A stretch of 64,000 bases of DNA, from positions 20,201,034 to 20,265,033 of the forward strand of contig OZ024895.1 in NCBI GenBank assembly GCA_964017195.1, written 5' to 3'. Shown here in pieces: positions 6,401 through 58,321 of the stretch. The notes under the pieces were generated by a model. That model saw only the letters and a list, made by a program, of their open reading frames with translations, searched no databases and had not been told where the DNA came from. Position 1 is the stretch's first letter. Each line of letters starts with the position of its first letter. The position numbers and the translations under genes were made by a program. The DNA is from Siderastrea radians (Eukaryota; Cnidaria; Anthozoa; Scleractinia; Rhizangiidae).

Positions 6401-9400
6401 GCGGATGCATAACACACATGTAAAATGAGGGTTCTGGCGCAGAAACTTTATTAAGCGGTTTTTTCCCCGAAACTCGGCTCCCATGCTCGCCTCGTTTCGG
6501 GTAAAAACCGCTTAATAAAGTTTCTGCGCCAGAACACCTCATTTTACATGTGTGCGAGTGTGAAATAAAGCAAACAGAATAAAAAACGAAGCGCGTGACT
6601 GCGCGGGTCCAGTGAAGAGGATGTGTCACAGAAAATATTTTCTATTTAAGAAATGTCTGCACTGATTATGTACAAAAGTGCGCCAGAAATATTTCCTATT
6701 GAACAAGTATCACACAAGTATATTAACCAAAATGGCAGCCGCAAGATATTCGTCCGATGTTCTGCAATCAAACAACTGTCAGGTTACCGAAGCCATACAA
6801 AGCCTACCGCCTGAGCTACGTGAGATAATTCACAAACATTACCTCGCTATAAAACTGAGAGAGCGAGTGGCTTTTGGTTTGAAAGAGGTACACAATGAGT
6901 TATTAAAACAACCTTTCTGTAATAACAGGCAGCAACTTGCTCGTATAATAATATGTTTAGAGTATAATAACTGTCGCTGGGAAGGGCTTTGTTATCCCTG
7001 TTTTGAGCAAGGAATCAAACATAAACTGTTGTACACTTCTCCGATTGAGAATATACCTTTATTAAAGATTTGCTCTGATACTTACGACTGGCACAGCGCA
7101 TATAACGACTTTAAGGAATTGGTTGACCTCGGTGTGCTTTTGTGAAGGGTACCAACCACCAATTTAAAAAAAAAAAGAACGAAACATAACCGAACACACA
7201 CACAAAAAATATAATCGATTAAATATTTGTGAGTCAAAGATGGCTGCCGGGTTCAACACCTGTCAGGTTATTGAAGCAATACAAAACCTACCACCAGAAT
7301 TACGTGAGATAATTTACAAACATTACCTCGCTATAAAACTGAAAGAGCGAGAGGCTTTGGGTTGGAACTTGGTTCACAATGAGCTTTTAATTCAACCTTT
7401 CTGTTCTGAAATGGAGCGGCTTGTACATATTTTGGTGTGTGTAGCCTATATGCACTGTTGTTGTGGAGGATGTTGTTACCCTTGTTATAAACAAGAAGAA
7501 ATCTTGCATGAAATAACCATCTCTGTTCCGATCTTGGATATAACTCTAATTAAGTTTTGCACTGATATATGGGAAGAGGACCACAGCCATTAAGTTGTGT
7601 TTACGGTGCGTGACTTCGTGGTTCGGTGAAACTCACAGACAATGACGTAATTTATATTCTCGTTCAAACATTGAAGGGAAACCCCCTAACAACTCAAGCT
7701 TGAAAAAACAAATCAATATTCACAGACAGGTTACATTAATTCATAATCAAAATATTCATTACCGTCAGCAGAAGTCTTGAGACCTATTTTGTAGACAAAT
7801 TGATAATAATCATCTTCCATCAGGTCTTCTGTAAGTCGTTTAGGGGCCCACACACAAAACTCATCTCCATTTTTTGTTTCCAAAGTTAAAATAGCTGAAT
7901 CCCCATTTTTACCTGTTCTATATTTAACTTTTTTAATTTTGTAAATAGTGTCTGAAATATCCCGCCATTTTAAAATTTCTTTTCTTTCAAAACTTTCTTC
8001 TGTTGGCCAGCCTTGTGAGATCGCATGTTGATCTGTGCAGACAGCCATAGTAAGAGATGTGTTGAAGATACATTTGTTTAATAGCGTGTACTTTTCTACT
8101 CGAGGTAAAATTTTGTGAAGCGCATGCGTAAAAACATCCAATTATTATGACATTAAGGTGAAGGACAGAAAAAGGGTACCATAAGGAATAGAAGAAGAAA
8201 AATGTGTTTTATGTATATTGAAAGTGATCAATATTAAAATTAGTTCACTCATTGGTAAAGCTTTAGGGGGGTGATGGTTGGCCACCATCTGAACCCTGTT
8301 TGAGGGCTTGCATGCGGTGAATTACGAGGTATAGGGGAACTCCTTCCAGTGGGAGAGTACCCTACGGGTGAGCCTGCCTCGGCCCTACTGGTGACAGGGG
8401 GGTGCTCAGAGATCCCTCGGGATTTCAACCTCGCTCCCAGAGGTAAAATGTGGAATGACAACCGCCTTGTCAGCGGTTAAATCCTCACTTCGGTGAGGTG
8501 AAAGTCCTAGCCGAGGCTAGGCAAGAACAGCCACGAGCACCCCCCGACGAGGGTTTTTGCCCTTTTATGTGACCTGTCACGCAATTTCACGCGTGACTGT
8601 CACGTTTGCTGTCACACAATGTCACGACTCTTGTCACAGAAGGTCACGCGTGACTATCACACATTTTTCGTTGTTTAAAAGAGTTTTATTAGGAAAAATC
8701 GATTATGGAACCACATCATAGCCTAAAATTGGGTAACCATCTTCATCACGAGTTGGTAACATTATTTTTGAAACACACTCACGAGTAATGTATCGTATTT
8801 GTCTTACATCAGGAGGAGTGAGAAGCTCAAAAAACCAATGACAAATAGTTGCAAAAAGTGCAATCATTTTGTAAGCGTATATAATTACTTTGAAAATCTA
8901 CAATTGAGTGAATTTTTTGTTATACTTTCTTTGAACAGAAAGCGGAATCTCCATACAATGATCAGTGAGGAAATTTTCTTTCATTTTTAATTTATCAAGA
9001 AAGGCCTTCTCGTCGAAAACTTCACCTCTGAGGTAAAAGCGAATCTCATCAAGTATTTTTTGGTATTCGATACGAGCAAAATGTGCTTGTTCTGTTTTCT
9101 TATCGTATTTCTTAAGGCTTGCCACTGCTTTCAAAATAAGACCAACACCAGTTAAAGTTGCCATGACAGCAGGGTTCAACGTAATTCCTCCGGCTACTGC
9201 GGCACTGATTATTAACTTGCCAGCTGAAAGATTACAAACAAAATTTTTTCTTCGAAAACCGTGATGCAACTTTTCATAGCCATAATGTTTCTTATGGTAA
9301 TAACCATACAAATCTTTCAGAATTTTAACTTTCTCTGCAGAAAGTGTTTGGTCGATATGGTTGAATTCGAAAATGTCCCGCATTGTGCTATATAATATAT

Positions 9401-12400
9401 GTAAAAATGTTTGGGTTTATATTTATATTCAACCAATAATAATAAATTTTCATTTACATGTGATAGTTGTGTTTCATCCGTAAAAAACATTGATATTACA
9501 TAATAAATTCCTATATCATGATTAATATCGAAGTTTTCTTATATCAGTCGAATTGAACCTATGTACAGAAGATTTTGTCGAATCATTAGGATCTTCTTTT
9601 TTCAAAAAAAGACTAATAGAATTATATTTACTTTGGTTTGTTTCATATATTATTTTTGCCTTTAATAACACATTACTTTTATTCATTACTATTTTTTTTA
9701 AACCATTTAATGAAAAATCACCATTACCATCTTTTTTATCATGAAAACCATTTATGCAATGAACGGAACCACTCAAATTATGTCCGTTTAAAGACAAATC
9801 TGTTTGCATAACCATTTTTCCGTTTTCAATTACAAAAGCGGTGTCATAGACACTTGGGTCAACATTTGAAATTGTTTCTTTAACACCATAGACAATTAAA
9901 TGGCCAATTGTTAAAAATGATGGATTACTAACTGTACCGTGCAGATCAAGGTAAAGAAATTGTGGGGGTGAGCTACCCCATCTGTGAAAATTGATAACTG
10001 GTTTGGTGTACTTCTCGAATGTCTTGGTTACATAATTAGAAATTGAAATTGTCGTTGCTTGGGGTGTTACACTCAACTCATTCATTTCCGGCGGAAACCA
10101 TTCAACGACCATTGTGTAATAACCGACCGGAAGTTTGTATAAGTTAAAACCGAGGCGTGACCGGTACTGGTAGGGTGAGCCTTTTTCAAACAAGAGTTTA
10201 AATTGGTAAGCTTTTTTATTTATTTGATGTGGAGACTCGGGAAAATCACTGATACCCAAAACCTCGATATTGTTTTCACTCGAAGATTCATCAGTGTCTT
10301 CCATCAAGTATCTGAAGGCGTCTCTTTTTTGCCCCGAGTTAATGATCTGAGATTCATGAATTTTTTGAGTGACAAGATCTCTCATAGTTGTTATTTCATT
10401 TTGCATAAAATCAACATTAACTGCGGATTGCGAGTCTTTGTAATCGGTTTGTAAGTTAACAATTTTATTATTGTTTAAATTCAAGTCTCCAGACATACTT
10501 TTTGAGCCATCAAGTTTAAGATGTTCTTTTTGTGTTTCACTAATTCTTTTGTTAACAAACTCGACACTTGTGGCGTCTTTTTGGTTTGATGGAAATTTGA
10601 GATTTACAATCGAATTGTTTTTCATATCAATATTTGCTCCTTTATCCAGTTTTTTCGCAAGCTGATTATCAACATATTTTTTGTTTGTTGCTTGATCTGC
10701 CTGTACTGGGTCTTTTACGTTGTAGATTGTATTATTGTTCATATCAATGCTTGCTTCCATTTTTCCGCCTTCCTTTTTTGAAAGAAAGATATTTCTCGTG
10801 TCCTGATAGTTTATTACCTTTGTCAGATCACCGTGAACAGGATAAGGGTTGCTTTTTAATCGCAAAATATCGTACTTATTTTGCATGTCAATATTAGCAG
10901 AACCGCTGACACTACCCTGAGATCCAGGATCACCTTTTTCACCTTTATCGCCCTTGTCGCCCTTGTCCCCCTTGTCGCCCTTGTCGCCTTTTAAACCCCG
11001 TGGTCCTTGTGCTCCCTCCTGACCTTGTGGTCCAGCGGGCCCTTTTTCACCCCTCGGTCCAGAAGGACCTTGTGCTCCCGCTGGGCCTTTATCACCCTTC
11101 GGCCCAGGAGGGCCTTCAGGGCCAGGAGGACCCCCTGGGCCAGGAGGACCAACTTTTTTTTCACCTTCACTCATCGTTGTGTGGCTGGTTCCACCTATTT
11201 GACTGTTAATATACCCCATTATATATCTTCATCAAAATTTTTTTCATTAATTTCTGGGGTTTGTCATAGTAAAAGAAAGAATATTTTTCATCGGTGGCGC
11301 GATCTAAAACCTCATGATCTACACCTATTTCGTTTGCAATTCGTTTGTTTTCTTTTGGATCTAATCTGAAAATACAAAGATGGCTGCAGTTAACACGGAT
11401 GTCTGTTGGCACCTTGTAAAAGGTTTGAGAGAGGTAAATAACGCAGCAGTTTTTGTGCCGCCCGTTGATAAAATAATTAATGATATCGTTTTGGTTTTTT
11501 TCACAAACAAGATCGTCAAAAACAACTATTTTTTGGGTGTCCACCGGAAGCTCTTCGAGTGGAATGATTTCATCACCATGGGCCTCGATAACCTCATAAC
11601 CAACCTTGGGGTGGGGGTTGACTTCTTCAGCGAAGTACTGCAAAAGATCCTGGTATTTGTTCTGGTGTAGGTTCTTTGAGAAGAGGTAAATTTTATCATA
11701 CTCTAACAACTCATAAAGCATATGCAGTAATGTGTTTGTTTTACCAGAATTACTGGGTCCACAAATTAACATCCGAAAAACATCTGATGGCATGCAAGGG
11801 TGGACTTGTTTGTAGTTACTCTTAGAAGAACCTGGGTCATAATTTGGAATCTTCCTTTTTTTTTCGCTTCTATATATAAACGCTGGAAATATGTCAATGA
11901 AAAAATGGCGTCAGCGGGCTGGAGAAAAGTTGAAGCTTGATGAACAAACAGAAGAAATTCACCAAAAATTCAAAATGGATAAAATAAACAAAGAGTTTGG
12001 TCAGCTTTCAGGAGAAGAGTTTTTAAACCAATCACAAAAAGGCTTGATAGAAGTGCCACTGTAGAAGAGGAAGAGGAGGAAGAAGAGGAGCAGGAAGTTC
12101 CTGATTACACAATGGATGAATTTGACGAAACTTACCCTTTTGGTGATGAATTCCGACCGGATGCACCAACACCGGCATCATCACCAACACCACCACCATC
12201 ACCACCACCACCATCATATCAAGAAGTTGTTGATGATGATGATGATTTTCTACCACCACCACCCCAATCGCTGATGGAAGAAAAAAATCTACACGTAAAG
12301 AGTGGGGGGAACCGAAACCGGTTAAAAAAGAATTTTCCCATGAATCAACCCTATTGCAAACAGTCAATCAACTGATCACGAAATACGGAAATGACCCCAA

Positions 12401-15400
12401 TTACAAAGTAAAAAGTAAAAATTCTCCATTATATAATTATTCAATTGAGGACCTCAAAAAAGTAAGAGATGGAATTTATGCAAAAAGAGGGGTTCCAAAA
12501 ACAGTTTTTGAGAAACAGTTACAGGCGGGGAAGTATAGACTGAAGTCCACTCCCCCACAAGAGAAAAGAGAAACTGCTCAAACTCCTCTTGAAAAAGCTG
12601 TCATGAGCGGAAGACCTGCTTTTGAACTTTCTGACAATGAAGATGACTCTTATGAACAGGATTGGGAAACCGAAGGAAGTGGCTTCTATGATGATGAAGC
12701 TGAAAAATTGATCAACCAACTTAATTTGAGTTTTGGCTCAATAAAAGCAGGAAACAACTCGATAAAACTTAAAATACAGGTATTTTATCTGCTTGATTCA
12801 CTTGTTGAACTCGGTAGAATAAATGAAAAGCAAAAGAAAAAAATTTTTCTTATATATAAAACAATAATGGGCTTTGACATACTGCTTGACTCGAGCCTTG
12901 CAAAATTAGAAAGAGGTGGAGAACGGAATGTTTCACACGATTTTACAGTGAAGTTTTATCCACCGATCGAATTGGGTAAAGGAAACTATAAAGCTGCGTT
13001 AAACAGACTTATCACAATGAGTTACTCATGGAACAACATTGATTCTCGTTATGATAATAACAAAATTCGCTGGAACAAAAAAACAGAACAAGTGTGGAAG
13101 ACCTTAACTTTTCCGAATGGAATGTATGATTACAAAAGAATAAACACATTTATTCAGCAACACACCGGTAAAGTAGACCCAACAAACAAAGACAGTGATT
13201 ACATTTTCACAATGTATTTCGATATGTCAATTTATAGAGTTGTGACTTTGATACATAAAGATTATGAGCTTGACTTGTCACAAGGAAATTTTGGCGAATT
13301 GATTGGTTATGGAAAAAGTACCTTGAGGGGGGATGCTGTCGGAAGGAAAGTTCCAAATATTACAAGAGGTGTTGATTGGGTTTATTTGCACTGCGATCTT
13401 ATCTCACCCCGAACAAACAATGTTCCAAGCGATGTGTTATACAGTTTCTCAACATCAGATCTTCAGGTAAGCTATCAGTTTCGAAAAGAGCCACGTCGAC
13501 TTGAGTGGCAGCCTGTTAATAAAAGTAATATAAATGCAATAAGAGTTTGGGTGACAGACGGAAGAAACAATATTCTGGATCTCAATGGGACAGACATTGC
13601 AATAAGCTTAATGATTGAAAAAGATTAAAGTTTTTGTCGGTATAATACACAATCATGTATCATCCAAGCGAGTGGGCAAGATACTTTGATGAAAAAACCT
13701 GGAGTTATCGATATAAACACAAAGGGTCGGGTGTGATCCGTGACACCTTCATGACAATTGGTAAAGTACTCAAAAACAATGTAAAGAATGTTGCAAAAAA
13801 AACTGCTGAAAAAGCCACAAAAACAATCGCTGAAAAGGCGGGTCAGAAAGTTGGTGAATTTACTGTTGAAAAAGGTTCGAAACAAATACGAAAACTACTG
13901 CAAGAGCGGAAAAAACAAAAACCATTGTCACAAGATGCAAAAAAGAAACTTGCAAATATTTTGCAAAACCCAACACCAAATAAATCAGACGCTCTTGTGA
14001 AATTAAATCAAATTTTGGCAAATGAAATTTAATTAAAAAAATTTTTTCTATAAATATAATAAGCACTTGCAACATGTTCAGAAGTAAACCATACCTCGAA
14101 AAGACAAGATACGTTCGAATTAGTTTAAACACTCCGATTGAACTTCCTGTGAACAATCAATTTCAAAGAAAAAATGATTACAAATTCGATGTGACAGACC
14201 GAGACAATTTTTATGACTGGTACAACGCTTATTTTCGAGTTGATTTCAAGTTTGAAGCAAAAGCAAACGGAGGTAACGTTGTTGCTGACACTGAATCAGC
14301 TCCTATTAACGGTTCTTTCTCATTGATCAAAAGTTTGAAAGTAATGTCATCAGGGAAATGAAATGTTGTTCGTAAATTTGAGCTGTGGGCCCCACAATTG
14401 CATTTTACTGGTAAAGGACAGACTCTGGTAAATGAAAATTTTTTGAAACCAACCCAATGGAAATACCTGAATGAAACTTTGCATCACAGCAGCGCCCGAA
14501 GGGATGCGAATGGTACGTGGTTAATTACACCGGGGGTAAAAAACCCCAAGCATGTTTTTGTCTTCATTCAACAAAGTCGGAAACAAAATGATTACAGGTA
14601 CAACCCTTACATCTTTGACACATTTGATATCGATGGTGATGACTAAGCAAGATTGGACACTTGCCGCCTTCAGTACGGCACAAAATTTTACCTTGAGCTT
14701 GATTACGACCATGATTTTAAAATAAGAATTTTGAATGATTTGATCAATTTCCGATACAGAAAGAACGACTACAATACCGGAGTTCAGCTGCAGCTTGCAA
14801 ATTTTGAGAAGTTATACCCAATTATCTATTTTGATCTACGAAACATTGAAGAATTTTAGTGTGACAGGCGACCCGAAAAAGCTTGAATTACATTACAGAC
14901 TGAATGAAGCCGCAAACGCTCAAGATTATATGATCTTCGCTTTGGTTTTGAATGAAGAAGAATTCGTGCTAAAACAAATTGGCAGTGAGCTTGTTGTTGT
15001 CTAGGAAAAAAAATTGAAAAAAAATTTTGAATACAATGTACACACAAGATGAGCACAACTTATAATCCTTTCAAAATAGCACTGACTGATGGCCAGAAAA
15101 AAAACTTCAAAAAGCTTATGTAAAAAAGATGCCTGTTGGTCTGAAAGTCAAACCAGACCAAATTGGGCGTGGTGACGAACTTCTTCTCACTGAAACTCAA
15201 ATCAAGCGATTGAAAAAAAGATCGGCGGCAGGTAAAGGAATGGTAATAAAATTAAGCCAGACACAGATTCAGAACACTGCGCAGCGTGGTGGAAATTTGT
15301 TTTCTGCTATGTTAGGTTTGGCACGGCCTTTGATAAAGCCAGCCCTTGGAGCATTAGCGAGTGCAGGTTTGAGTTTTGGCGCTGAAAAGGTGCTGAAAAA

Positions 15401-46308: not shown

Positions 46309-46403
46309 AGAGTACCAACCACCAATTAAAAAAAAAACGAAACATAAACGAATACGAATGAATTTCTTTTTCTAATCTGATAGATATTTGTGAGTCAAAT
46401 TTG

Positions 46404-46763
46404 ATGGCAACCGGATTCAACACCTGTCAGATAACGGAAGCAATTCAAAACCTACCACCAGAGTTACGTAAGATAATTTATAAACATTACCTCGCCATAA
46501 AACTGAAAGAGCGAGAGGTTTTGGGTTGGAACTTGGTTCACAACGAGCTTTTAATACAACCTTTTTGTCCTGAAATGGGGCGGCTTGTGCATATTATAGT
46601 GTGTATAGCTTATATGCACTGTTGTCAGGGAGGGTGTTGTTACCCTTGTTATAAACAAGAAGAAATTTTACATGAAATAACCATTTCTGTCCCCGATATA
46701 ATTGATTTAATCTTAATTAAGTTTTGTACTGATATATGGGAAGAAGATTATCATAATCATTAA
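46404..46763 (+). CDS. Cysteine-rich protein, paralogue 2 (Polinton 2 copy)
   Basis: 119 residues from ATG 46404: [41 protein letters not shown]. It is the intact orthologue of 7240-7593, with nearly all cysteines kept. Unlike its upstream neighbour it was not cut by the TIR replacement. Confidence 0.7.
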   Translation: MATGFNTCQITEAIQNLPPELRKIIYKHYLAIKLKEREVLGWNLVHNELLIQPFCPEMGRLVHIIVCIAYMHCCQGGCCYPCYKQEEILHEITISVPDIIDLILIKFCTDIWEEDYHNH

Positions 46764-46871
46764 GTTGTGTTTCGGCGCGTGATTTCGCGGTCTGGTGAAA
46801 ACTCACAGACAATGACGTTCAAACATTGAAGGGAAACCCCCTAACAACTCAAGCTTGAAAAAACAGACAGG

Positions 46872-47189
46872 TTACATTAATTCATAATCAAAATATTCAT
46901 TACCGTCAGCAGAAGTTTTGAGACCTATTTTGTAGACAAATTGATAAGAATCATCTTCCATCAGGTCTTCTGTAAGTCGTTTAGGGGCCCACACACAAAA
47001 CTCATCACCATTTTTTGTTTCTAAAGTTAAAATAGCTGAATCCCCATATTTACCTTTTCTATATTTAACTTTTTGAATTTTGTAAATAGCGTCTGAAATA
47101 TCCCGCCATTTAAAAATTTCCTTTCTTTCAAAACTTTCCTCTGTTGGCCAGTCTTGTGAGATCGCATGTTGATCTGTGCTGCTAGCCAT
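46872..47189 (-). CDS. Small putative OB-fold protein (Polinton 2 copy)
   Basis: 105 residues starting [20 protein letters not shown] and ending [11 protein letters not shown], the same length as the copy at 7731-8048 and over 85 percent identical. The conserved [20 protein letters not shown] core supports a real, constrained protein. Confidence 0.65.
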   Translation of the reverse strand: MASSTDQHAISQDWPTEESFERKEIFKWRDISDAIYKIQKVKYRKGKYGDSAILTLETKNGDEFCVWAPKRLTEDLMEDDSYQFVYKIGLKTSADGNEYFDYELM

Positions 47190-48482: not shown

Positions 48483-48647
48483 TTATGGAACCACATCATA
48501 GCCTGAAATTGGGTAGCCATCTTCATCACGAGTTGGTAACATTATTTTTGAAACACACTCACGAGTAATGTATCGTATTTGTCTAATACTAGGAGGAGTG
48601 AGAAGCTCAACAAGGTAATAGCAAATAGCTTGCAAAATTGCAATCAT
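48483..48647 (-). CDS. 54-residue putative membrane protein (Polinton 2 copy)
   Basis: Same 165-nt length as 8703-8867. The hydrophobic start differs (MIAILQAICYYLVELL), but the [20 protein letters not shown] and ...GYDVVP parts are kept. Retained length and second half in two diverged copies indicate a real gene. Confidence 0.65.
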   Translation of the reverse strand: MIAILQAICYYLVELLTPPSIRQIRYITRECVSKIMLPTRDEDGYPISGYDVVP

Positions 48648-48677
48648 TTTGTAAGCGTATATAATTACTTTAAAAAT

Positions 48678-49163
48678 CTACAATTGAGCGAATTTTTTAT
48701 TGTACTTTCTTTGAACAGAAAGCGGAATCTCCATACAATGATCAGTGATGAAATTATCTTTCATTTTCAAGCTATCAAGAAAGACCTCTCTCTCGAAATT
48801 TTCGCCTCGGAGGTAAAAGCGAATATCGTCAAGGATTTTCTGGTATTCGATACGGGCTAAATTTGCTCGTTCCATTTTTTTATCGAATTTTTTAAGGCTT
48901 GCGACTGCTTTCAAAAGAAGTCCAACACCTGTTAAAGTTGCTATGACAGCAGGGTTCAGTGTTATTCCTCCAGCTATTGCGGCACTAATTATTAACTTGC
49001 CAGCTGAAAGATTACAAACAAAATTTTTTCTTCGAAAACCGCGGTGCAACTTTTCATATCCATAATGCTTCTTATGGTAAAAAGCGTATAAATCTTTCAG
49101 AAATTTAACCTTCTCTTCAGAAAGTGTTTGGTCGATATGGTTGAATTCGAAAATGTCCCGCAT
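48678..49163 (-). CDS. 161-residue putative membrane protein (Polinton 2 copy)
   Basis: Identical length to 8898-9383 and about 85 percent identical, keeping the [20 protein letters not shown] hydrophobic core and the [15 protein letters not shown] end. Its ATG is preceded by a TATTATATAG box. Function not recognised. Confidence 0.65.
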   Translation of the reverse strand: MRDIFEFNHIDQTLSEEKVKFLKDLYAFYHKKHYGYEKLHRGFRRKNFVCNLSAGKLIISAAIAGGITLNPAVIATLTGVGLLLKAVASLKKFDKKMERANLARIEYQKILDDIRFYLRGENFEREVFLDSLKMKDNFITDHCMEIPLSVQRKYNKKFAQL

Positions 49164-49215
49164 TGTGCTATATAATAAATGTAAAAATTTTATGGTGTTC
49201 TATATTCAATCAAAA

Positions 49216-50970
49216 TTAAGAATTCTTCATTTTTAAATTTTGGGATAACAAAAAAACCTGAAAAATACCACTTGGTAATTTGAAATTAATATCTATTTTT
49301 TGTTTTTGAATTGCTTTTTTTGAAGCGAAACTTAATGGAGGAAAACCACCAGTAACTACTCTTAAAGTAATAGCTGGAAATGGACCCATAATGTTTTTAA
49401 ATAATACTGTTGCATTTAATAAATTACTGTTTGCTGGAATGAGTATCTCTGAATTACCATTTAATTCAAAAAGTGTTCTATCATTTTTCGTTGATAAATA
49501 CCCATGTATATAATGAACGGAGCCACTCAAATTATGCCCGTTGAAAGATAAATCTGTTTCCATCACCATTTTTCCATTCTCAATTACAAAAGCGGTGTCA
49601 TAAACACTTGGGTCAACGTTTGAAATTGTTTCTTTTACACCATAAACAATAAGATGTCCAATTGTTAAAAGTGATGGAAAAGTAACTGTACCGTGTAGAT
49701 CGAGATAAATAAATTGTGGAGGTGAGCTAACCCATCGGTGAAAATTGATGACTGTTTTGGTGTAGTTTTCGAATGTTTTTGTTGCATAATTAGAAATTGA
49801 AATCGTAGTGCCTTGCACTGCCACACTCAACTCACTCATTTCCGGCGGAAACCATTCAACGACCAAAGTATAGTATCCAACAGGAAGTTTATAAAGGTTG
49901 AAACCGAGGCGTGACTGGTACTGGTTGGGTGAGCTTTTTTCAAACAAGAGTTGGAGAGAGTAAGCTTTTTTATTAATTTGATGTGGAGACCCGGAAAAAT
50001 CACTGATACCCAAAACCTTGATATTGTTTTCACTCGAAGATTCATCAGTGTCTTCCATTAAGTATCTGAAGGCGTCTCTTTTTTGTCCTGAATTAATAAT
50101 TTGAGATTCATGAATTTTTTGAGTGACAAGATTTCTCAAATCTGTTATTTTTTCTCGCACAAAATCAACATTAACTGCGGATTTCGAATTTCTGTAATCG
50201 GTTTGCAAGTTAATAATTTTATTGTTATTTAAAATCAAGTTTCCAGACATACTTGTTGTGCCATCAAGTTTGAGATAATTTTTTTGTGTTTCACTAAGTC
50301 TGTAGTTAACAAACTCGACACATGTTGCGTCTCTTTTGTTTGTTGGAAGATTAAGATTGATAATTGATTTATTTTTCATATCAATTTTAGCTCCTTTATC
50401 CAATTTTTTCACAAGTTGGTTATCGACATATTTTTTATTTGTTGCATGATCTGCCTGTGTGGGGTCTTTCACATTGAAAATTGTATTATTATTCATATCA
50501 ATATTTGCTTCCATCTGTCCGCCTTCCTTTTTCGAAAGAAAGATATTTCTCGTGTCCTGACAGTTTATTACCTTTGACAGATCACCGTGAACAGGATAAG
50601 GGTTGCTTCTTAATCGCAAAATCTCGAACTTATTTTGCATGTCAATATCAGCAGAACCGCTGACACTACCTTGAGACCCAGGATCACCTTTATCACCTTT
50701 ATCACCCTTATCACCCTTGTCGCCCTTATCGCCCTTGTCACCTTTTAAACCACGTGGTCCTTGTGCTCCCTCCTGACCTTGTGGTCCAGTGGGCCCTTTT
50801 TCTCCTCTTGGTCCGTTAGGACCCTGTTGTCCTCCAGGGCCTTTATCACCCTTCGGTCCAGGAGGACCCTCGGGGCCAGGAGGACCCCCTGGGCCAGGAG
50901 GACCAACTTTTCCACTTTCACTCGTCGTTGTTTGGCTAGTTCCACCTATTTGACTGTTAATATACCCCAT
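49216..50970 (-). CDS. Collagen-like, tail-fibre-like structural protein (Polinton 2 copy)
   Basis: 584 residues: Gly-X-Y block (about 22-100), tail-fibre-type repeats ([26 protein letters not shown] and relatives), then a beta-rich domain. It matches the Polinton 1 fibre closely up to about NLSGSVHYI. The final 105 or so residues are unrelated and longer. The ATG immediately abuts the end of the ATPase gene. Confidence 0.8.
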
Positions 50971-51602
50971 TATATATCTTCATCAAAATTTTTCTTAATT
51001 ATTTTTTGGGGTTTGTCATAGTAAAGGAAAGAATATTTTTCATCGGTAGCGCGATCTAAAACCTCATGATCCACACCTATTTTGTTTGCAATTCGTTTGT
51101 TTTCTTTTGGATCTAATCTGAAAATACAAAGATGGCTGCAGTTAACACGGATGTCTTTCGGCACCTTGTAAAAGGTTTGAGAGAGGTAAATAACGCAGCA
51201 GTTTTTGTGCCGCCCGTTGATAAAATAATTAATGATATCGTTTTGGTTTTTTTCGCAAACAAGGTCATCAAAAACAACTATTTTTTGGTTGTCCGCCCGA
51301 AGTTCTTCGAGTGGAATGATTTCATCACCATGAGCCTCGATAACCTCATAACCAACCTTGGGGTTGATTTTTTCAGCAAACTCCTGCAAAAGATCCTGGT
51401 ATTTGTTCTGGTGCAGGTTCTTTGAAAAAAGGTAAATTTTATCATACTCTAACAGCTCATAAAGCATATGCAGTAATGTGTTTGTTTTACCAGAATTACT
51501 GGGCCCACAAATTAACATCCGAAAAACATCTGCTGGCATACAAGGGTGACCTTTCCTGTAGTCACTCTCGGAAGAACCTGGGTCATAATTTGGAATCTTC
51601 AT
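50970..51602 (-). CDS. Genome-packaging ATPase (Polinton 2 copy)
   Basis: 210 residues from the ATG at 51602 ([20 protein letters not shown]). Walker A GPSNSGKT, Walker B IVVFDDL and [14 protein letters not shown] are all present. This is the reference for the start lost in Polinton 1. Only about 35 nt separate its start from the divergent PPSY gene, in a shared TATATAT-containing promoter region. Confidence 0.88.
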
Positions 51603-51636
51603 TTTTTTTTCGCTTCTATATATTTACGCTGGAAAT

Positions 51637-52558
51637 ATGTCAGTGAAAAAATGGCGTCAGTTGGCTGACGAAAAAACGGTGTTGGATCAGCAAACAGAAG
51701 AAATTCACCAAAAATTCAAAATGGATAAAATTAACAAAGAGTTTGGTCAGCTTTCAGGAGAAGAGCTTTTTAAACCAATCACAAAAAGGCTTGATGAAAA
51801 GAGCAGCACCGCTGTGGAAGAAGAGGAAGAAGAGGAGCAGGAAGTTCCTGATTACACAATGGATGAATTTGACGAAACTTACCCATTTGGTGATGAATTC
51901 AGACCGGATGCATCAACACCATCATCATCATCACCAACATCACCACCATCACCAACACCACCATCATATCAAGAAGTTGTTGATGATGATGATGATTTTC
52001 CACCACCACCCCCGCTGATGGAAGAAAAAAAATCTACACGTAAAGAGTGGGGGGGGGGGACCGAAACCGGTTAAAAAAGAATTTCCCCATGAATCATCCC
52101 TTTTGCAAACAGTCAATCAACTGATCACGAAATACGGAAATGACCCCAATTACAAAGTAAAAAGTAAAAAATCCCCATTATTTGGTTTATCAATAGAGCA
52201 ACTCAAAGAAGTAAGAGATGAAATTTATGGGAAAAGAGGGGTACCTAAAAGAGTTTTTGAGAAACAGTTACAGGTGGGGAAGTATAGACTGAAGTCCACT
52301 CCCCCACAAGAAAAAAGAGAAACTGCTCGAACTCCTCTTGAAAAAGCTGTCATGAGCCGAAGACCTGCTTTTGAACTTTCTGACAATGAAGATGACTCTT
52401 ATGAACAAGATTGGGAAATCGAAGAAAGCGGTTTCGATGATGAAGCTGAAAAATTGATCAACCAACTTGATTTAAGTTTAGGATCAATAAACGCAGGAAA
52501 CAACTCGATAAAACTTAAAAAACGGGTATTAGATCTGCTTGATTCACTAGTTGAATGA
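51637..52558 (+). pseudogene. Proline-rich acidic protein with PPSY motif (Polinton 2 copy), one frameshift
   Basis: The first frame (51637-52074) runs from MSVKKWRQLADEK through the Glu-rich run, [19 protein letters not shown] and [20 protein letters not shown], and goes out of frame at a run of 10 G near 52051 (6 G in Polinton 1). The rest (to 52558) lies in another frame: a Lys-rich domain and a short acidic end ([20 protein letters not shown]). A separate stop before the penton gene is intact here. Confidence 0.65.
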
Positions 52559-52607
52559 CATAATTGATAAAAAATAAAAAAATTTTTTCTGATAATATAC
52601 GCCAATA

Positions 52608-53369
52608 ATGAGCTTTAACTTACTGCTTGACTCGAGCCGCGCAAAACTTGAAAGAGGAGGAGAACCGAATGTTTCACATGATTTCACAGTAAATTTTTAT
52701 CCACCACTCGAATTGGGTAAAGGAAACTATAAAGCAGCGTTGAACAGACTTATTACAATGAGTTACTCATGGAATAATATCGATTCTCGTTATGATAACA
52801 ATAAAATTAGATGGAAGAAAAAAACAGAACAAGTGTGGAAAACTTTAACTTTTCCGAATGGAATGTATGATTACAAAAGAATCAACACTTTTGTTCAACA
52901 ACACACCGGTAGAGTAGATCCAGCAAACAAAGACAGTGATTACATTTTCACAATATACTTCGATATGTCAATTTATAGGGTTGTGACTTTGATACATAAC
53001 GATTATGAGCTTGACTTGTCTCAAGGAAATTTTGGTGAATTGCTTGGTTATGGAAAAAGTACCTTGAGAGGGGATGTTGTCGGAAGGAAAGTTCCAAATA
53101 TCACAAGAGGTGTTGATTGGGTGTATTTGCACTGTGATCTTATCACACGCCGAACAGACAATGTTCCAAGCGATTTGTTATACTGTTTATCAACTGCAGA
53201 TCTTAACGTTAGTTATCCATTTCGAGAACTGCCGCTTCGACCTGAGTGGCAACCTGTGAATAAAAGTTATATTGAACAAATAAGGGTTTGGGTGACAGAT
53301 GGAAGAAACAATATCCTGGATCTCAATGGGACAGATATTGCAATTAGTTTAATGATTGAAAAAGAGTAA
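52608..53369 (+). CDS. Penton-like minor capsid protein (Polinton 2 copy)
   Basis: 253 residues, intact, about 88 percent identical to 12868-13628. It has its own ATG, preceded by a TTTTTTCTGATAATATACGC box, and defines the boundary of the gene in both elements. The beta-rich content and position before the hexon-type gene support, but do not prove, a penton role. Confidence 0.7.
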   Translation: MSFNLLLDSSRAKLERGGEPNVSHDFTVNFYPPLELGKGNYKAALNRLITMSYSWNNIDSRYDNNKIRWKKKTEQVWKTLTFPNGMYDYKRINTFVQQHTGRVDPANKDSDYIFTIYFDMSIYRVVTLIHNDYELDLSQGNFGELLGYGKSTLRGDVVGRKVPNITRGVDWVYLHCDLITRRTDNVPSDLLYCLSTADLNVSYPFRELPLRPEWQPVNKSYIEQIRVWVTDGRNNILDLNGTDIAISLMIEKE

Positions 53370-53397
53370 AATTTTTTGTTGGTATAAATATACAACC

Positions 53398-53768
53398 ATG
53401 AATCATCCGAGCGAGTGGGCAAGATTCTTTGACAAAAAACGGGACGTTATCGATATAAACACAAAGGGTCGGGTGTGATCCGTGACACCTTCATGAACAT
53501 TGGTAACGTATTCAAAAACAATGAAAATAACGTGGCAAAGAAAACAGCCGAAAAAGCCACAAAAACAATCGCTGAAAAGGCGGGTCAGAGATTTGAAAAA
53601 GGTTCGAAACAAATACGAAAAATACTGCAAGAGCTAAAAAAATCAGATACTGTTGAAAAAGGTTCGAAACAAATGCGAAAAAAAAGAAAACCGTTGTCTG
53701 AAGATTCGAAAAAGAAACTTGCAAATGTTTTAACCAAACACCAAAAAATATTAGATGCTCTCTTGTGA
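53398..53768 (+). pseudogene. Basic core-like protein (Polinton 2 copy), frameshifted
   Basis: It opens with MNHPSEWARFFDKK and shifts frame within 20 codons. The main part lies in the frame of 53475-53768 ([20 protein letters not shown], then [17 protein letters not shown]). A short internal repeat VEKGSKQ.RK occurs twice, an expansion not seen in Polinton 1. Confidence 0.6.
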
Positions 53769-53837
53769 TTAAATCGAATTTTGACAAAATATTAATCAAA
53801 GAAAAAAATTTTTTTTCCTTTTTATATAACTGGCAAC

Positions 53838-55075
53838 ATGTTCAGAACTCCACAATTCCTCAAAAGATCAGAAGACATTCTTATTGAATGTCAAAAACAG
53901 TTAGTAGACCCTGGGAATGACCAAACACAAGAAAAAAGTGGTTATAATTTCGTAATGGAAGACAAAAACCATTTTTATGACTGGTACAGAGCTTATTTCT
54001 TAGTTCATTTCAAGTTTGAAGCAAAAGTAAATGGAGGCAACATTGTAGCTGACACTGAATCTGCTCCGATAAATGGTTCTTTTTCATTAATCAAAAACAT
54101 GAGAGTTTCATCATCGCGACAACACTTTCTGAGTCTAACAATATCCACAAAGGCATTTTCATTAAAAATCTGCTTGACTATTCAAACGATTATTCGGGAA
54201 CTGTGGCAAAAGATCAATTTTGGCATCTTGACGTTGACAAAACCACAATACTGGAATGCGTGAAAGAGCTCTTCTTTCAAATGGTGGAAAGATAATTGAG
54301 ACAAAAATTCCTTTAAACAGATACGCATTTTTCGAAAATCTTTCCGTAACTCTTTTACCACCAATGAAAATTGAGTTTGAAATTACTCTGCAAGACGATA
54401 AAGAACTTATTTTCCAAAACGATGGAACAGCACGAAGAATTGTTGTAAAAAAAATTTGAGTTATGGGTTCCACAACTATCTTTCCACGGTGAAGGACAAA
54501 AATTTGTGAATGAAAATTTTTTAAAACCAAAGAAAAAAAAATTCTTGAAAGAACGAATTATGGATAGCTCCCCAAGAACTGATACTGGTGGTACGTGTTC
54601 GTTTACATCTGCAATTAAAAATGTAAAACATGTCTTCGTGTTTTTTCAACAATATCGTAAAAAAAAATCTTACACTCAAAACCCCTACTTTTTTGACACA
54701 TTTGATCTCGATGGTGATAAATCAGCAAAATTAAAGAGATGTCGACTAAATTATGGTGAAAATTTTTACCCTTTGGTTCCTTTATCAGACAAAAACAAAT
54801 TGAGAATTTACGAACATTTGCTAAATTATAGTTACAGAAATTATGATTACAACAGCGGTGTTCAGCTACAGATTGCAAACTTCGAGAGTTTATACCCGAT
54901 CATTCACTTCGGTCTAAGAAATAATGAAAAATTTATGACAAATGATCCCCTTAATCTTACTTTAGAATACGAATTAAACAAAACAGCAAACCTTCAATAC
55001 ATTATATACGCATATGTTATAAATGAAGAAGAATTTGTTTTAGAAACACTTGGTAATGAGCTTGTTGTTGTCTAG
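53838..55075 (+). pseudogene. Major capsid protein (Polinton 2 copy), frameshifted
   Basis: Full length is present, including the middle part missing from Polinton 1, but it is spread over three frames with shifts near 54115, 54290 and 54455. Recognisable: [83 protein letters not shown]. It is only about half identical to the Polinton 1 copy at its N-terminus, much less than neighbouring genes. Confidence 0.8.
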
Positions 55076-55114
55076 AAAAAATTTAAAAAATTCTGAATAT
55101 AATATATACGCACA

Positions 55115-55501
55115 ATGAGCACAACTTATCATCCATTCAAAATCGCACTGACTGATGGTCAGAAAAAGAAACTTCAAAAAGCTTATGTTAAGAAGGCAGC
55201 TGTTAATCTGAAAGTTAAACCAGACCAAATTGGGCGTGGTGACGAACTTCTTCTCACTGAAACTTAAATCGCGCGATTGAAAAAAAAATCAGCGGCAGGG
55301 AAAGGAATGGTAATAAAATTAAGCCAGACACAGATTCAAAGTACTTCTCAGAGTGGAAAAGGTATGCAAACGCAACCACCACCACCGCCACCACCACGAA
55401 CAAGACGATCACCAGGAATACCAAAAGGTAAAGGGATGCAAATTCAACCTCCACCTTTTTATGGAACTTGGGAGGATTATTATCGTTTAAAAAAAAGGTG
55501 A
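55115..55501 (+). pseudogene. Adenovirus pX-like protein (Polinton 2 copy), truncated
   Basis: The N-terminal part ([20 protein letters not shown] and on) is in frame here but meets a TAA at 55264-55266 where Polinton 1 has CAA. About 270 bp coding the hydrophobic centre are deleted after QIQSTSQSGKGMQ. The [20 protein letters not shown] tail remains, ending at TGA 55499-55501. Confidence 0.6.
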
Positions 55502-55940
55502 AATTGTTGATAAACCTCTTTCCAACATTGAACTGAGAAAATGGTGCAACTTTTTACGAATACCCATCAAAGGCATTTTTAGCAGAAACGAAAAAAAACC
55601 CTTTTTTCATTCCCCATGCATTATCAACTTGGATGATTTCGGAAGTTTGGGAACTCACTGGGTATGTTGTTGGCCAAAAGGAAAAGGTCTTTATGAGTAT
55701 TTCGATTCATTTGGCTTTCCACCACCTTTGGAATGGGTACAAGAGATGTCAATGCACGGGATGACACATTTTTTCAGAAATGACAACCACATTCAATGGG
55801 AACAAAGTGTGAGATGTGGTTACTACTGCCTTCTCTTTTTAAACGAAAGAAATAAAGGCACAAGTTTTGCCGATATTTTGGAAATGTTCTCCAACGATTT
55901 ACTTCAAAATGAGGAAATTGTGAAAAATTATTTTTCTTAA
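55497..55940 (+). CDS. Adenain-like maturation protease (Polinton 2 copy)
   Basis: The frame is open from 55491 to the stop at 55938-55940. It holds the likely catalytic histidine (DDFGSLGTHWVCCW), the [13 protein letters not shown] block and the cysteine block [19 protein letters not shown], as in adenovirus-type proteases. I see no ATG at its 5' end. An eight-A run at 55489-55496 separates it from the pX tail frame, so either a frameshift or a lost start has occurred. Confidence 0.7.
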   Translation, partial: GEIVDKPLSNIELRKWCNFLRIPIKGIFSRNEKKPFFHSPCIINLDDFGSLGTHWVCCWPKGKGLYEYFDSFGFPPPLEWVQEMSMHGMTHFFRNDNHIQWEQSVRCGYYCLLFLNERNKGTSFADILEMFSNDLLQNEEIVKNYFS

Positions 55941-55950
55941 AATATATACA

Positions 55951-56100
55951 ATGGAAGTGTACTGTGTGAAAGAAAAGCGGAACACACCCAATGTGAAGGG
56001 GACCGAAAAGGTTGTTATCACAAAGAACAATCGAAAACTCTTGAAAGTAAAGTGCGCAAGTTGTGGAAAAATGAAATCAAGTTTTTTGCCGGGAAACTGA
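55951..56100 (+). CDS. Small Zn-ribbon protein (Polinton 2 copy)
   Basis: 49 residues, the same length as 16069-16218: CVKEKRNTPNV and [17 protein letters not shown], then TGA. A TTAAAATATATACA box is directly upstream. It overlaps the PLA2 frame in -1, with the T TTT TTG heptamer and the downstream GCCCTCC/GGAGGGC hairpin preserved. Confidence 0.65.
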   Translation: MEVYCVKEKRNTPNVKGTEKVVITKNNRKLLKVKCASCGKMKSSFLPGN

Positions 56101-56762
56101 GTGAGCCCTCCCGCGCGGAGGGCAGTGGTATTGATATACATGCAGCAATTGGTAAATTTCCGAAACCAAAAAAAGGTTGGACATTGCCGGGACATAATTT
56201 CACAGGGCCATACAATCCTCTTGAAAAGCAGGTTAAATTCAATCCAGAAACGGGTGAAATTCTTGAAATATATCAACAACCCACAGGTGCTACAGATGCG
56301 ATTGCAATGCAACACGATGTTGATTATGATGTTTGTTCCAACCGTGAAAAAAAGTATGGTGAAAATCTCAAAAAATGCAAAAACAAAGCAGATAAAAAAA
56401 TGGTGAAGTCTCTTGACGCAGTTCCTTACGAACAAAGGCAGTGGGGTCATACGGTTGCAAGAAATGCAATCAATGCTAAACAAAAGTTAGGGTTGGGTTT
56501 AAAAAACCAAAAAGGAACTGGTGCTTTGGATAAACCATTGGAAGTAGTGAAATTTGCTGAAACTTTGACAAAAAAAATGATTCCTTCCACAAAACATGTA
56601 TTCGATCGGTATTGGTCAGGTGATATTGCGAAAAATGCTTTCACAGGACCAACTGGTGTCACAAGCAAGAAATTTTGGACTCATCCGAAAAAAGGTACTG
56701 TCATGCGTTTGGTGAAAAACCCGAAAACAGGAAAATATGAAAATGTTTATGAAGAGCCTTGA
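56052..56762 (+). CDS. Phospholipase A2 minor capsid protein (Polinton 2 copy), internal deletion
   Basis: 236 residues. The PLA2 part is intact ([25 protein letters not shown]). Relative to Polinton 1, about 270 bp coding the N-terminal helical domain are deleted in frame, joining GSGI to [10 protein letters not shown] at a short shared sequence. The C-terminal part is about 92 percent identical. Overlaps the following minus gene by 16 nt. Confidence 0.8.
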   Translation: MRKLWKNEIKFFAGKLSEPSRAEGSGIDIHAAIGKFPKPKKGWTLPGHNFTGPYNPLEKQVKFNPETGEILEIYQQPTGATDAIAMQHDVDYDVCSNREKKYGENLKKCKNKADKKMVKSLDAVPYEQRQWGHTVARNAINAKQKLGLGLKNQKGTGALDKPLEVVKFAETLTKKMIPSTKHVFDRYWSGDIAKNAFTGPTGVTSKKFWTHPKKGTVMRLVKNPKTGKYENVYEEP

Positions 56763-57297
56763 TTGGCTTTTAACCACCATTTATCAAACTCCTGTTTTGG
56801 CAGCCACCAGCTTACAAAGCTTTTTGGAAGGTGTTGAGAAATAGATTTCATAATTTCTTTTTTGTTGGGCCAGCATTCAGAAGGTACTTTTTCAAAATAA
56901 TTATACAGAAAACAGGGGTAGTTCACTGACTTGCCGGACATCTTCTGAAATTGTGCAATAACGTTTCCAAGAAAATCTACCTCGCTGAAAGAAAACATTT
57001 TGTAAATGTTCCATTTCCGCAAAGCACTTTTTAAATGAAAATTAGTTGCAGTGAAAATTCTTTCCCGATTTTCTTCTTGAAACTGTTCATCATCATCATC
57101 AAATTCAGACGCTCTTCCACATTTTGGACATGCACGACAGAACTCATTCACCACATAAATTAATTGCTCCTCGCATGAAGGACAACGATAAAAATTTTTT
57201 TTGATAATGGGTATGAATTTAATTTTTTTTGCAACATTTCTTTAATCATTTTCGACGAAATTTTCTCACCTTGCAAACAACCAAACGGGTCGTCCAT
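56747..57297 (-). pseudogene. Zn-ribbon protein, possible late transcription factor (Polinton 2 copy), frameshifted
   Basis: The start is at 57297 (MDDPFGCLQGEKISSKMIKE). An A-rich run near 57185-57195 shifts the frame before the CPSC...CRACPKCG ribbon. The rest (56747-57154) is open and about 75 percent identical to Polinton 1. Its ATG is only 22 nt from the divergent integrase ATG. Confidence 0.55.
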
Positions 57298-57319
57298 TTT
57301 TTATTCTGTATATTATACA
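57298..57319. promoter_or_regulatory. Divergent promoter of integrase and Zn-ribbon genes
   Basis: The 22 nt between the two start codons contain TGTATATTATACA, a near-palindromic TATA-type box able to serve both strands. In Polinton 1 this whole stretch and both starts are deleted. Confidence 0.5.
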
Positions 57320-58321
57320 ATGAGCTCACGTATTTTCAATAAATTGTCAAAAATTTATTACAGCCCGCAAGGGTATTGGAAAGGTTTTGCAGCAATTAAG
57401 AAATTAGCCCAGGCAGCGAAAGTTTCGGAAGATGTGGCTCAAAACTGGTTGATGAAGCAAGCTCTTTGGCAGGTTTATTTACCAACCCCACGGTACATTC
57501 CAAGACCGAAATTTGACGTTCCTGTTCCAAACAAAGTTCACCAAGCCGATCTTCTGTATCTCCCACACGATCGCCCACCACGCTTCCGTAAAACTTTTAA
57601 ATATGCTCTCACAGTTGTTGATGTGGCCTCTCGATACAAAGAGGCCGAACCGTTGACCACAAAAGAGGCAAAAGAAGTTGCAGCTGCTCTGGAACGGATT
57701 TATAATCGTGGTCCTTTGAAGTGGCCGAAACTGCTTCAGGTCGATCCTGGTCGTGAGTTTATGGGTGCTGTGAATCAACTGCTTTCAAAACATAATGTCG
57801 AGGTTAGACGTGGTCGTGTGGATATTCACCGTGATCAAGCAATTGTTGAAAGATTCAACCGCACCCTTGCTGAACGGCTGTTTGGACACCAGTATGGGGT
57901 TGAAATAAGACTCCCTGAGGGTCAGCGGTTCACTGCGTGGGTGACCCGACTGCCTGCTGTTATTTCAGCTTTAAATAAAGAAGTCACTCGACTGACTGGT
58001 CAAAAACCTGTTGATGCTATTAAAAAGAAAACTGTTCCATCCAAACCCTCAACACCTTATTTGAGACCCGTTGGTGTGAACGAAAAAAAGCTCCCCTCCG
58101 GTTTAAGTGTTCGCTATCTCTATCAACCCGGTGAACTTGAAGGTGGTCGGCGAAGAGCAACCGACCCAATCTGGTCTTTGAATGTTTACGAGATTGAAAA
58201 AATTATGATAAAACCAAACGCTCCGGTTATCTATTATTTATTTGACGGACCAAAACGTTGGTTTGTCCGCGAAGAGCTTTTGGTTGTTCCTCCAGATACA
58301 CAACTACCACCAGCAAGCTAA
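57320..58321 (+). CDS. int: Retrovirus-type (DDE) integrase (Polinton 2 copy), intact
   Basis: 333 residues from ATG 57320 ([20 protein letters not shown]). Catalytic acids as in Polinton 1: [31 protein letters not shown]. Residues to about 208 are nearly identical to the Polinton 1 protein. The C-terminal third (from TRLPAVISALNKEVTRLTGQ) is only about 65 percent identical. The stop overlaps the polB stop by 2 nt on the other strand. Confidence 0.92.
   Translation: MSSRIFNKLSKIYYSPQGYWKGFAAIKKLAQAAKVSEDVAQNWLMKQALWQVYLPTPRYIPRPKFDVPVPNKVHQADLLYLPHDRPPRFRKTFKYALTVVDVASRYKEAEPLTTKEAKEVAAALERIYNRGPLKWPKLLQVDPGREFMGAVNQLLSKHNVEVRRGRVDIHRDQAIVERFNRTLAERLFGHQYGVEIRLPEGQRFTAWVTRLPAVISALNKEVTRLTGQKPVDAIKKKTVPSKPSTPYLRPVGVNEKKLPSGLSVRYLYQPGELEGGRRRATDPIWSLNVYEIEKIMIKPNAPVIYYLFDGPKRWFVREELLVVPPDTQLPPAS

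What the first reader, a model, noticed from the sequence alone, without database searches (positions are those of the whole stretch)
6881..57944. Two Polintons share a capsid module but have swapped replication module, TIRs and integrase tail
Seen: 6881-18210 and 46038-57944 are collinear and mostly about 85-95 percent identical. Outside those points nothing matches: TIRs are unrelated and PolBs belong to different families. The right switch falls inside the integrase gene, right after GCGTGGGTGA, so the catalytic core is shared while the C-terminal domain changes. In retroviral integrases the C-terminal domain contacts DNA, so this domain may travel with its cognate TIR. The left switch is within 10 bp of the TIR inner edge. 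Inference: recombination between two Polinton lineages exchanged the whole terminus-plus-replication cassette.
Basis: partly seen in the sequence, partly recalled or inferred. Interest (0 to 1): 0.9.

Follow-up and report, generated by a model that had tools for sequence, protein, structure and literature searches.

The report
Hybrid Polinton with a borrowed end
Two virus-like Polinton elements lying close together in one genome share most of their genes, but one carries an integrase tail, a polymerase and genome ends of another kind, and in both elements the left end looks like a copy of the polymerase end.

Summary
Elements A (6412-23532) and B (45663-62460) are collinear from 6881/46038 into the integrase gene. 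Identity drops abruptly at 18207-18211 (LLR 67.7; best of 500 permutations 8.4), to 70% rather than to nothing.

Trees settle the direction. A's integrase core groups with the B lineage and its last ~125 residues with a third lineage (C). The opposite groupings are rejected (AU p 5e-7 and 0.003). Diagnostic residues switch between codons 185 and 207. Similar hybrids lie on other contigs.

The left end was misread. In both elements the TIR encodes the native first codons of that element's own PolB (12 in A, 37 in B). The left copy is fused in frame to gene 1 at the TIR edge. The likeliest history is one crossover in the integrase gene plus copying of the new right end onto the left. That the tail travels with a cognate TIR is possible but not shown; contig links are mixed.

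The shared block is itself mosaic, and both TIR types carry long terminal palindromes. Polinton module exchange is known; end copying with fusion I did not find in the passages read.

The parts
6412..23532 (.). Element A, hybrid Polinton (~17.1 kb), degraded
   Evidence: TIR pair; left end motif ACACACA at 6412-6418; right end lacks ~41 bp of the left terminus
6412..6767 (+). Left TIR of A: near-terminal palindrome, then PolB-A start codon (6732) and first 12 codons ([12 protein letters not shown])
6732..7145 (+). Gene 1 of A: TIR-encoded PolB-A N-terminal peptide fused in frame to the gene-1 body at 6767/6768
7240..7593 (+). Gene 2 of A, tandem paralogue of gene 1, keeps the 5' part that B's gene 1 lost
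6881..18206 (.). Block collinear with B (46038-57940), itself mosaic
13978..15048 (+). Second diverged segment (69.6%) covering one gene, broken in both elements; MCP-like by recall only
   Evidence: no family assignment
9522..11219 (-). Collagen-stalk fibre-like protein; C-terminal tip not alignable with B's
   Evidence: Pfam Collagen E 9e-14; BLASTP 79% over residues 1-537 of 565 only
11206..11793 (-). Packaging ATPase
   Evidence: Pfam Pox_A32 E 4.7e-15
17610..18206 (+). Integrase of A, N-terminal and catalytic part, B lineage; its 5' end incl. start codon lies in a stretch present only in B
18207..18590 (+). Integrase of A, C-terminal part, groups with lineage C
18832..23254 (-). PolB-A gene region (EndoVII-bearing PolB), interrupted by a MITE-like insert and a frameshift near its start
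23219..23532 (-). Right TIR of A with PolB-A start; outer end truncated
45663..62460 (.). Element B, Polinton (~16.8 kb), ends (AGT)2//(ACT)2, 5-bp flanking repeat ATGTG
45663..46028 (+). Left TIR of B: terminal palindrome (~80-bp arms, 14-nt loop), then PolB-B start codon (45919) and about 37 codons
45919..46308 (+). Gene 1 of B: PolB-B N-terminal peptide fused in frame to a shortened gene-1 body at 46028-46038
57320..58321 (+). Integrase of B, typical of its lineage over its whole length
58643..62204 (-). PolB-B gene region in three ORFs (58643-59833, 59811-61445, 61728-62204)
   Evidence: Pfam DNA_pol_B_2 E 3.3e-12 on the first; relatives such as P0247 and P0250 match both upstream ORFs in one protein
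62095..62460 (-). Right TIR of B; its coding part is the native PolB-B N-terminus

Best explanation
Element A descends from a B-lineage Polinton that recombined with a lineage-C Polinton inside the 3' part of the integrase gene, between codons 185 and 207. It thereby acquired the integrase tail, the convergent PolB-A gene and a new right terminus (shown for the integrase tail; inferred for PolB and terminus from adjacency). The two ends no longer matched, so the left end was replaced by a copy of the new right end during linear, protein-primed replication. The copied tract reached past the PolB start codon and stopped inside gene 1, making gene 1 start with the PolB N-terminal peptide. B shows the same end structure with an unrelated TIR, so I infer that right-to-left end copying is a usual way for these elements to keep matching TIRs after a terminus change. 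Steps shown: the hybrid integrase, the PolB origin of the TIR coding sequence, and the in-frame fusions. Steps inferred: a single donor, the copying mechanism, and that matched ends are required.
For: Core tree (51 of 122 rows): A, P0013 and the 19 B-type rows form one clade (99/97), and A+C is rejected (AU p 4.9e-7). C-terminal tree: A and P0013 lie with four C-type rows (98/93), and A+B is rejected (p 0.003). Of 46 diagnostic sites, the first 31 (to residue 185) are all B-like; of the remaining 15, 12 are C-like, 1 B-like and 2 neither (the 13 C references were picked for tails at least 85% like A's, so the tail half leans that way by choice, the position of the switch does not). dS rises from 0.116 (core) to 2.45, near saturation (C-term). 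The hybrid is not private to this copy: P0013 (178 member sequences) and the truncated P0043 and P0096 match A in both parts. TIR peptides are native to PolB: many PolB-A relatives begin MAAARFSS(D/N)VLQ.FY, and PolB-B relatives such as P0247 begin ..NINIEELLKEL...AVRKTIQNILDEP. The right ends of A and B read on into exactly these. Left gene 1 has the same peptide in frame in both elements. No flank as diverged as at the right (70%) lies next to the left switch in 200-bp bins. End motifs of A (left end) and B belong to two known Maverick classes, (AC)3A and (AGT)2.
Against: No donor element with C-type integrase, PolB-A and TIR-A was seen as one locus. Links rest on equal contig lengths in three top-120 lists: C-type integrases 6 of 36 share a contig with PolB-A and 2 of 36 with PolB-B (P0110 counts in both). 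Hybrids: 1 of 3. B-type: 2 of 25 with PolB-A, 0 of 25 with PolB-B. Others: 0 of 56. The ten linked contigs are 0.45 to 38 Mb long, so a match does not prove one element. All C-type rows with A together are a branch of only 88/86 support in the tail tree, and the core tree cannot tell whether A lies inside or beside the B-type rows (p 0.50). A weaker step at 7625 (LLR 17; 0 of 500 permutations reach it) leaves room for a second crossover near the left end, and one 60-bp window at 7181 is as low as 72%. dS varies from 0.12 to 0.55 across nine shared gene pieces, so the history is more complex than one event.
Confidence: 0.62

Rival explanations
1. Double crossover: A took both ends from one donor by homologous recombination, at the left in or just after genes 1-2 (6881 to ~7625) and at the right in the integrase.
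For: Step in identity near 7625, from ~86% to ~95% (LLR 17; 0 of 500 permutations), and gene-2 dS 0.55 against 0.116 in the integrase core.
Against: The stretch from the other lineage at the right is 69.6% identical to B, whereas 6881-7600 is 85-88% in 200-bp bins. The A/B switch at 6881 coincides with B's own TIR edge, which a crossover would have to hit by chance. B, which is not the integrase recombinant, has the same kind of end fusion.
Confidence: 0.22
2. Cognate-tail model: the integrase C-terminal domain binds the element's own TIR, so selection keeps tail, TIR and PolB together and fixed the break at this place.
For: Tail, PolB and TIR all differ between A and B. C-type and hybrid integrases share contigs with PolB-A more often (7 of 39) than the remaining listed rows (2 of 81). 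Foldseek matches the model to retroviral intasome chains over most of its length, at low TM-scores.
Against: 0 of 25 B-type integrases share a listed contig with PolB-B and 2 of 25 do with PolB-A. The break lies near the start of the last core helix of a model with mean pLDDT 64, not at the C-terminal domain border. The conserved stretch at the break is enough to guide a crossover (inference).
Confidence: 0.2
3. Not recombination but unequal rates: the integrase C-terminus and PolB simply evolved faster in A.
For: None beyond the drop in identity itself.
Against: Synonymous divergence jumps about 20-fold at the break (0.116 to 2.45). 13 of 36 C-type rows have tails at least 85% identical to A's, while the cores of such rows are only 73-76% identical to A's.
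Confidence: 0.02
4. Assembly chimera.
For: Two similar repeats within 40 kb can mislead assemblers (general knowledge).
Against: The same hybrid integrase occurs in other clusters on other contigs (P0013, 178 member sequences; P0043; P0096), and the TIRs of each element match each other.
Confidence: 0.02

Closest known systems
Mavericks/Polintons with (AGT)2, (AG)3 or (AC)3A ends (Barreat and Katzourakis 2021, PMC8097293; section 7 and passages read)
   Same: Integrase of rve type, PolB, packaging ATPase, size ~17 kb, long TIRs, terminal di- or trinucleotide repeats suited to jumping-back initiation.
   Different: Here two end classes sit on closely similar gene blocks in one locus; TIRs carry PolB start codons and long terminal palindromes. 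The words palindrom* and hairpin do not occur in that paper's main text.
Adintovirus AB/BA pairings of Hexon and PolB clades (PMC11071296; passages read)
   Same: Virion and polymerase modules of different clades combined in one genome.
   Different: Here the join is resolved to ~20 codons inside the integrase gene in closely related elements, with the lineage of the tail identified by trees.
Adenovirus and poxvirus terminal-repeat repair and end transposition (recalled, no paper read on it)
   Same: Linear genomes restore or replace one terminal repeat by copying the other end.
   Different: Seen here only as a sequence footprint, with in-frame fusion of the PolB N-terminus to the gene at the far end.
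Named database hits: stony coral Oculina patagonica; one bacterial MAG
   Same: Integrase P0082 71%, PolB-A P0135 76%, PolB-B P0283 62% (Oculina); integrase P0113 75% (Candidatus Thiodiazotropha MAG, perhaps host DNA).
   Different: Most hits are unnamed and much closer ones exist among them; the host of the window was not identified.

Membership tests
Polinton/Maverick (Polintoviricetes) | rve-type integrase | tested here: met
   Pfam rve E 4e-10 and 5.3e-10
Polinton/Maverick (Polintoviricetes) | Family B DNA polymerase | tested here: met
   B: DNA_pol_B_2 E 3.3e-12. A: only Endonuclease_7 (E 0.0018, below the curated cut-off) hits the window ORF, but 7 of 120 listed relatives carry PF03175 and it aligns distantly with PolB-B
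Polinton/Maverick (Polintoviricetes) | Packaging ATPase | tested here: met
   Pox_A32 E 4.7e-15
Polinton/Maverick (Polintoviricetes) | Major and minor capsid proteins, Ulp1/adenain-type protease | tested here: inconclusive
   No meaningful hit in Pfam, NCBIfam or PHROGs for the candidate ORFs scanned; assigned by recalled motifs and gene order only
Polinton/Maverick (Polintoviricetes) | Long TIRs with terminal repeat motif | tested here: met
   B (AGT)2//(ACT)2 at both ends; A (AC)3A at left only, right end truncated
Polinton/Maverick (Polintoviricetes) | 6-bp target site duplication | tested here: inconclusive
   B has 5 bp (ATGTG) directly flanking both ends; A cannot be tested because its right end is truncated
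Adintovirus | Integrase with C-terminal chromodomain (as defined in PMC11071296) | tested here: not met
   No chromodomain in the Pfam scan of either integrase at E 0.05; a very diverged one could be missed
Adintovirus | PolB with N-terminal OTU-like domain | tested here: inconclusive
   No OTU hit in the scanned ORFs; the PolB genes are broken and were scanned only in pieces
Intragenic recombinant integrase | Trees of the two parts conflict and the opposite groupings are rejected | tested here: met
   AU p 4.9e-7 and 0.003; groups were named after the identity table was seen

The most novel reading that the evidence does not exclude
The polymerase end of these Polintons acts as a self-propagating unit: origin, promoter, start codon and first PolB codons, closed by a long terminal palindrome. 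It is copied onto the opposite end whenever ends mismatch, overwriting the 5' part of whatever gene lies there and tagging that gene in frame with the polymerase's own N-terminal peptide. PolB, TIR class and the left gene's N-terminus therefore co-evolve as one module while virion genes recombine freely. Palindromic ends would let the displaced strand fold back or anneal to drive the copying.
Probability: 0.3. Interest if true: 0.75.

Novelty: new variant of a known kind. Interest (0 to 1): 0.55.

Why it matters
Module exchange among Polintons and related viruses is known from whole-gene pairings. This pair fixes one exchange to a stretch of about 20 codons, with the recipient lineage and the lineage of the integrase tail named by trees. 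It also suggests a concrete, testable route by which a linear virus-like element regains matching ends after taking a foreign polymerase, which must happen each time replication modules are exchanged. The PolB peptide on the far-end gene is a footprint that can be counted in any genome with full-length elements.

Tried and rejected
Unequal evolutionary rates: rejected by conflicting trees and the dS jump. Assembly chimera: unlikely, given other hybrid clusters. Unrelated integrase tail: rejected, 73% amino-acid identity. Palindromes as inserted foldback elements: unlikely, because the arms begin within a few bases of the element's end motif in both A (left) and B. Domain-border break: the first structure model (mean pLDDT 52.9, alignment A1 of 25 rows) and the second (64.3, alignment A2 of 99 of 122 rows) are too weak to place the C-terminal domain; a sequence profile search of solved structures gave 0 hits at E 0.01. 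Context for relatives: viral contigs gave none in two scans; the one genome-contig scan gave one locus, L001, an integrase with a convergent A-type PolB in a bacterial MAG record.

Papers: search listings only; passages of PMC11071296, PMC8097293 (section 7), PMC11071308 and PMC9863843. Kapitonov and Jurka 2006 was not looked up (recalled only); a look-up by the DOI that I recalled for the adintovirus paper of Starrett 2021 found nothing held.
Full report
What is there. The window holds two Polinton-type elements in the same orientation. A spans 6412-23532 and B 45663-62460. B has TIRs of ~366 bp (98.6% identical), ends 5'-AGTAGT...ACTACT-3' and is flanked on both sides by ATGTG. A has TIRs of ~315 bp (99.0%); its left end continues outward to an ACACACA motif at 6412, and its right end lacks the outer ~41 bp. 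Both end motifs belong to classes described for vertebrate Mavericks, where (AGT)2 is the commonest and (AC)3A was found in the Asian swamp eel (PMC8097293 section 7). Both elements are degraded. A's PolB is interrupted by a MITE-like insert (inverted arms 21558-21631/22152-22225), and its integrase lacks a 127-bp stretch that in B includes the start codon. B's PolB lies in three ORFs. The gene at ~14.1-15.0 kb is broken in both.

The block. The two elements are collinear from 6881/46038 into the integrase gene. Segmentation of 10,101 aligned columns gives four levels: 89.5% (6881-13977), 69.6% (13978-15048), 92.7% (15049-18206) and 69.6% (18207-18590). The middle drop covers one gene and about 100 bp before it, including the 3' end of the preceding ORF; the gene is MCP-like by recalled motifs only, since no family library assigned it. 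The collagen-stalk protein is 79% identical over residues 1-537 and then unalignable at its tip. Synonymous divergence across nine shared gene pieces ranges from 0.12 to 0.55 (not all shared genes were measured). So the 'capsid module' is a mosaic, and the integrase switch is one of at least two strong steps.

The right switch. Identity falls from ~96% to ~70% at 18207-18211 (LLR 67.7; 500 permutations reach at most 8.4). The tail remains a homologue, 73% identical over 124 residues against 96% over 200 in the core. Of 120 listed relatives (4451 passed the cut-off) plus A and B, nine truncated rows were dropped, leaving 113 rows: 19 B-type (one of them B itself), 36 C-type, 2 A-hybrid (A itself and P0013) and 56 others, grouped by identity thresholds. 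The careful tree used 51 of these (2 hybrid, 19 B, 18 of 36 C, 12 of 56 others). In the core tree A and P0013 form one clade with the B-type rows (99/97), and A with C-type is rejected (AU p 4.9e-7); whether they lie inside or beside the B-type rows is open (p 0.50). In the C-terminal tree B-type stands alone (98/98), A and P0013 lie with four C-type rows (98/93), and A with B-type is rejected (p 0.003). At 46 sites where B- and C-type differ, A is B-like at the first 31 (to residue 185); at the last 15 it is C-like at 12, B-like at 1 and neither at 2. The 13 C references there were chosen for tails at least 85% like A's. A is therefore the recombinant and B the ordinary member. Similar hybrids exist in other clusters: P0013 (178 members), and P0043 and P0096 (truncated).

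Other core/tail conflicts. In 6,328 pairs of integrases, 38 have cores at least 90% and tails at most 80% identical, 21 of them hybrid versus B-type; 8 show tails at least 90% and cores at most 80%, 3 of them hybrid versus C-type. Some of the remainder may be further exchanges or plain rate differences; I did not test them.

Does the tail follow PolB and TIR? Only weakly testable here. Equal representative-contig lengths in the three top-120 lists link C-type integrases to A-type PolB in 6 of 36, hybrids in 1 of 3, B-type in 2 of 25 and others in 0 of 56; to B-type PolB in 2 of 36, 0 of 3, 0 of 25 and 0 of 56 (classes, the nine truncated rows counted as 7 B-type and 2 hybrid). P0110 links to both. 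Linked contigs run from 448 kb to 38 Mb, so a link is not proof of one element. L001, a 5.1-kb record, does show an integrase beside a convergent A-type PolB; its integrase is 70% identical to A and 69% to B. The Pfam rve match ends at residue 158, and the break near residue 200 lies near the start of the last helix of the core in a model of mean pLDDT 64. Foldseek matches that model to retroviral intasome chains (best E 3.8e-10), but TM-scores by query are low (0.23-0.27 in the 50 rows shown). I therefore treat the cognate-tail idea as open.

The left end. Each TIR contains a start codon and coding sequence. At the right end of A it reads [12 protein letters not shown] and continues MFYGPIPEK; at the right end of B it reads MTAQNINIEELLKELS...AVRKT and continues IKNILDEPISEKVEKK. 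These are native PolB N-termini: by a loose pattern, 50 of the 120 listed A-type PolBs begin with the MAAA class (69 other or truncated, 1 of the B class), and 36 of 120 listed B-type PolBs have the LDEP class (84 other or truncated). At the left end the same peptide is fused in frame to gene 1. In A the join is at 6767/6768, near gene 1's expected start by comparison with its paralogue gene 2. In B it is at 46028-46038, about 110 bp deeper, so that B's gene 1 lost its first part. I therefore favour replacement of the left end by a copy of the right end. A second crossover near 7625 remains possible (LLR 17, 0 of 500 permutations).

Terminus exchange elsewhere. P0233 (67 members) and L001 combine an A-type PolB body (57% identical to A's over 867 residues for P0233) with a B-type N-terminal segment (42% identical to B's over 90 and 66 residues). 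This fits exchange of the terminus plus the adjoining PolB codons in other lineages as well, but it could also be old inheritance.

Palindromes. The outer parts of both TIR types are near-perfect palindromes. As single-stranded DNA, 45661-45860 folds at -84.2 kcal/mol (z -26.2) and 6405-6580 at -71.3 kcal/mol (z -19.5); 0 of 200 shuffles fold as well in either case. Their sequences are unrelated, so the shape is shared while the letters are not. I found no mention in the passages read: palindrom* and hairpin do not occur in PMC8097293, nor palindrom* in PMC11071308. A paper search for Polinton/Maverick terms with palindrom* (12 of 62 listed, none of the palindrom* papers opened) put casposon papers first.

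Verdict. Recombinant Polinton confirmed, with direction and right breakpoint resolved. The whole-cassette exchange at both ends is replaced by crossover plus end copying as the best reading. The domain-cognate hypothesis is unproven.

Noticed in passing
45663-45840, 62279-62460, 6412-6560: Long near-perfect palindromes at the outer ends of both TIR types, with unrelated sequences but the same shape (z -26 and -19).
   Followed up: partly
13978-15048 / ~53745-55115: One capsid-region gene is only 69.6% identical between elements that are otherwise ~90% identical, with edges near the gene's ends: probably another exchange.
   Followed up: partly
9456-9747 / 49233-49501: The tip of the collagen-stalk fibre-like protein is unalignable between A and B while residues 1-537 are 79% identical.
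   Followed up: partly
L001 3299-4654, and P0233: A-type PolB bodies carrying a B-type N-terminal segment of about 65-100 residues.
   Followed up: partly
21473-22299: MITE-like insert with inverted arms inside A's PolB gene, holding a weak zf-AD match (E 0.02, below Pfam's cut-off).
   Followed up: no
47914-48108: About three tandem copies of a 65-bp unit, inside the region of B that does not align with A.
   Followed up: no
6732-7593 / 45919-46763: Genes 1 and 2 are tandem paralogues (73% over 313 bp in A); gene-1 body dN/dS 0.88 against 0.12 for gene 2.
   Followed up: partly
2340-2695 and 23727-24437 / 29565-30290: Other inverted repeats in the flanking DNA: 113-bp arms 130 bp apart, and a 76% identical inverted pair of ~0.7 kb.
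   Followed up: no
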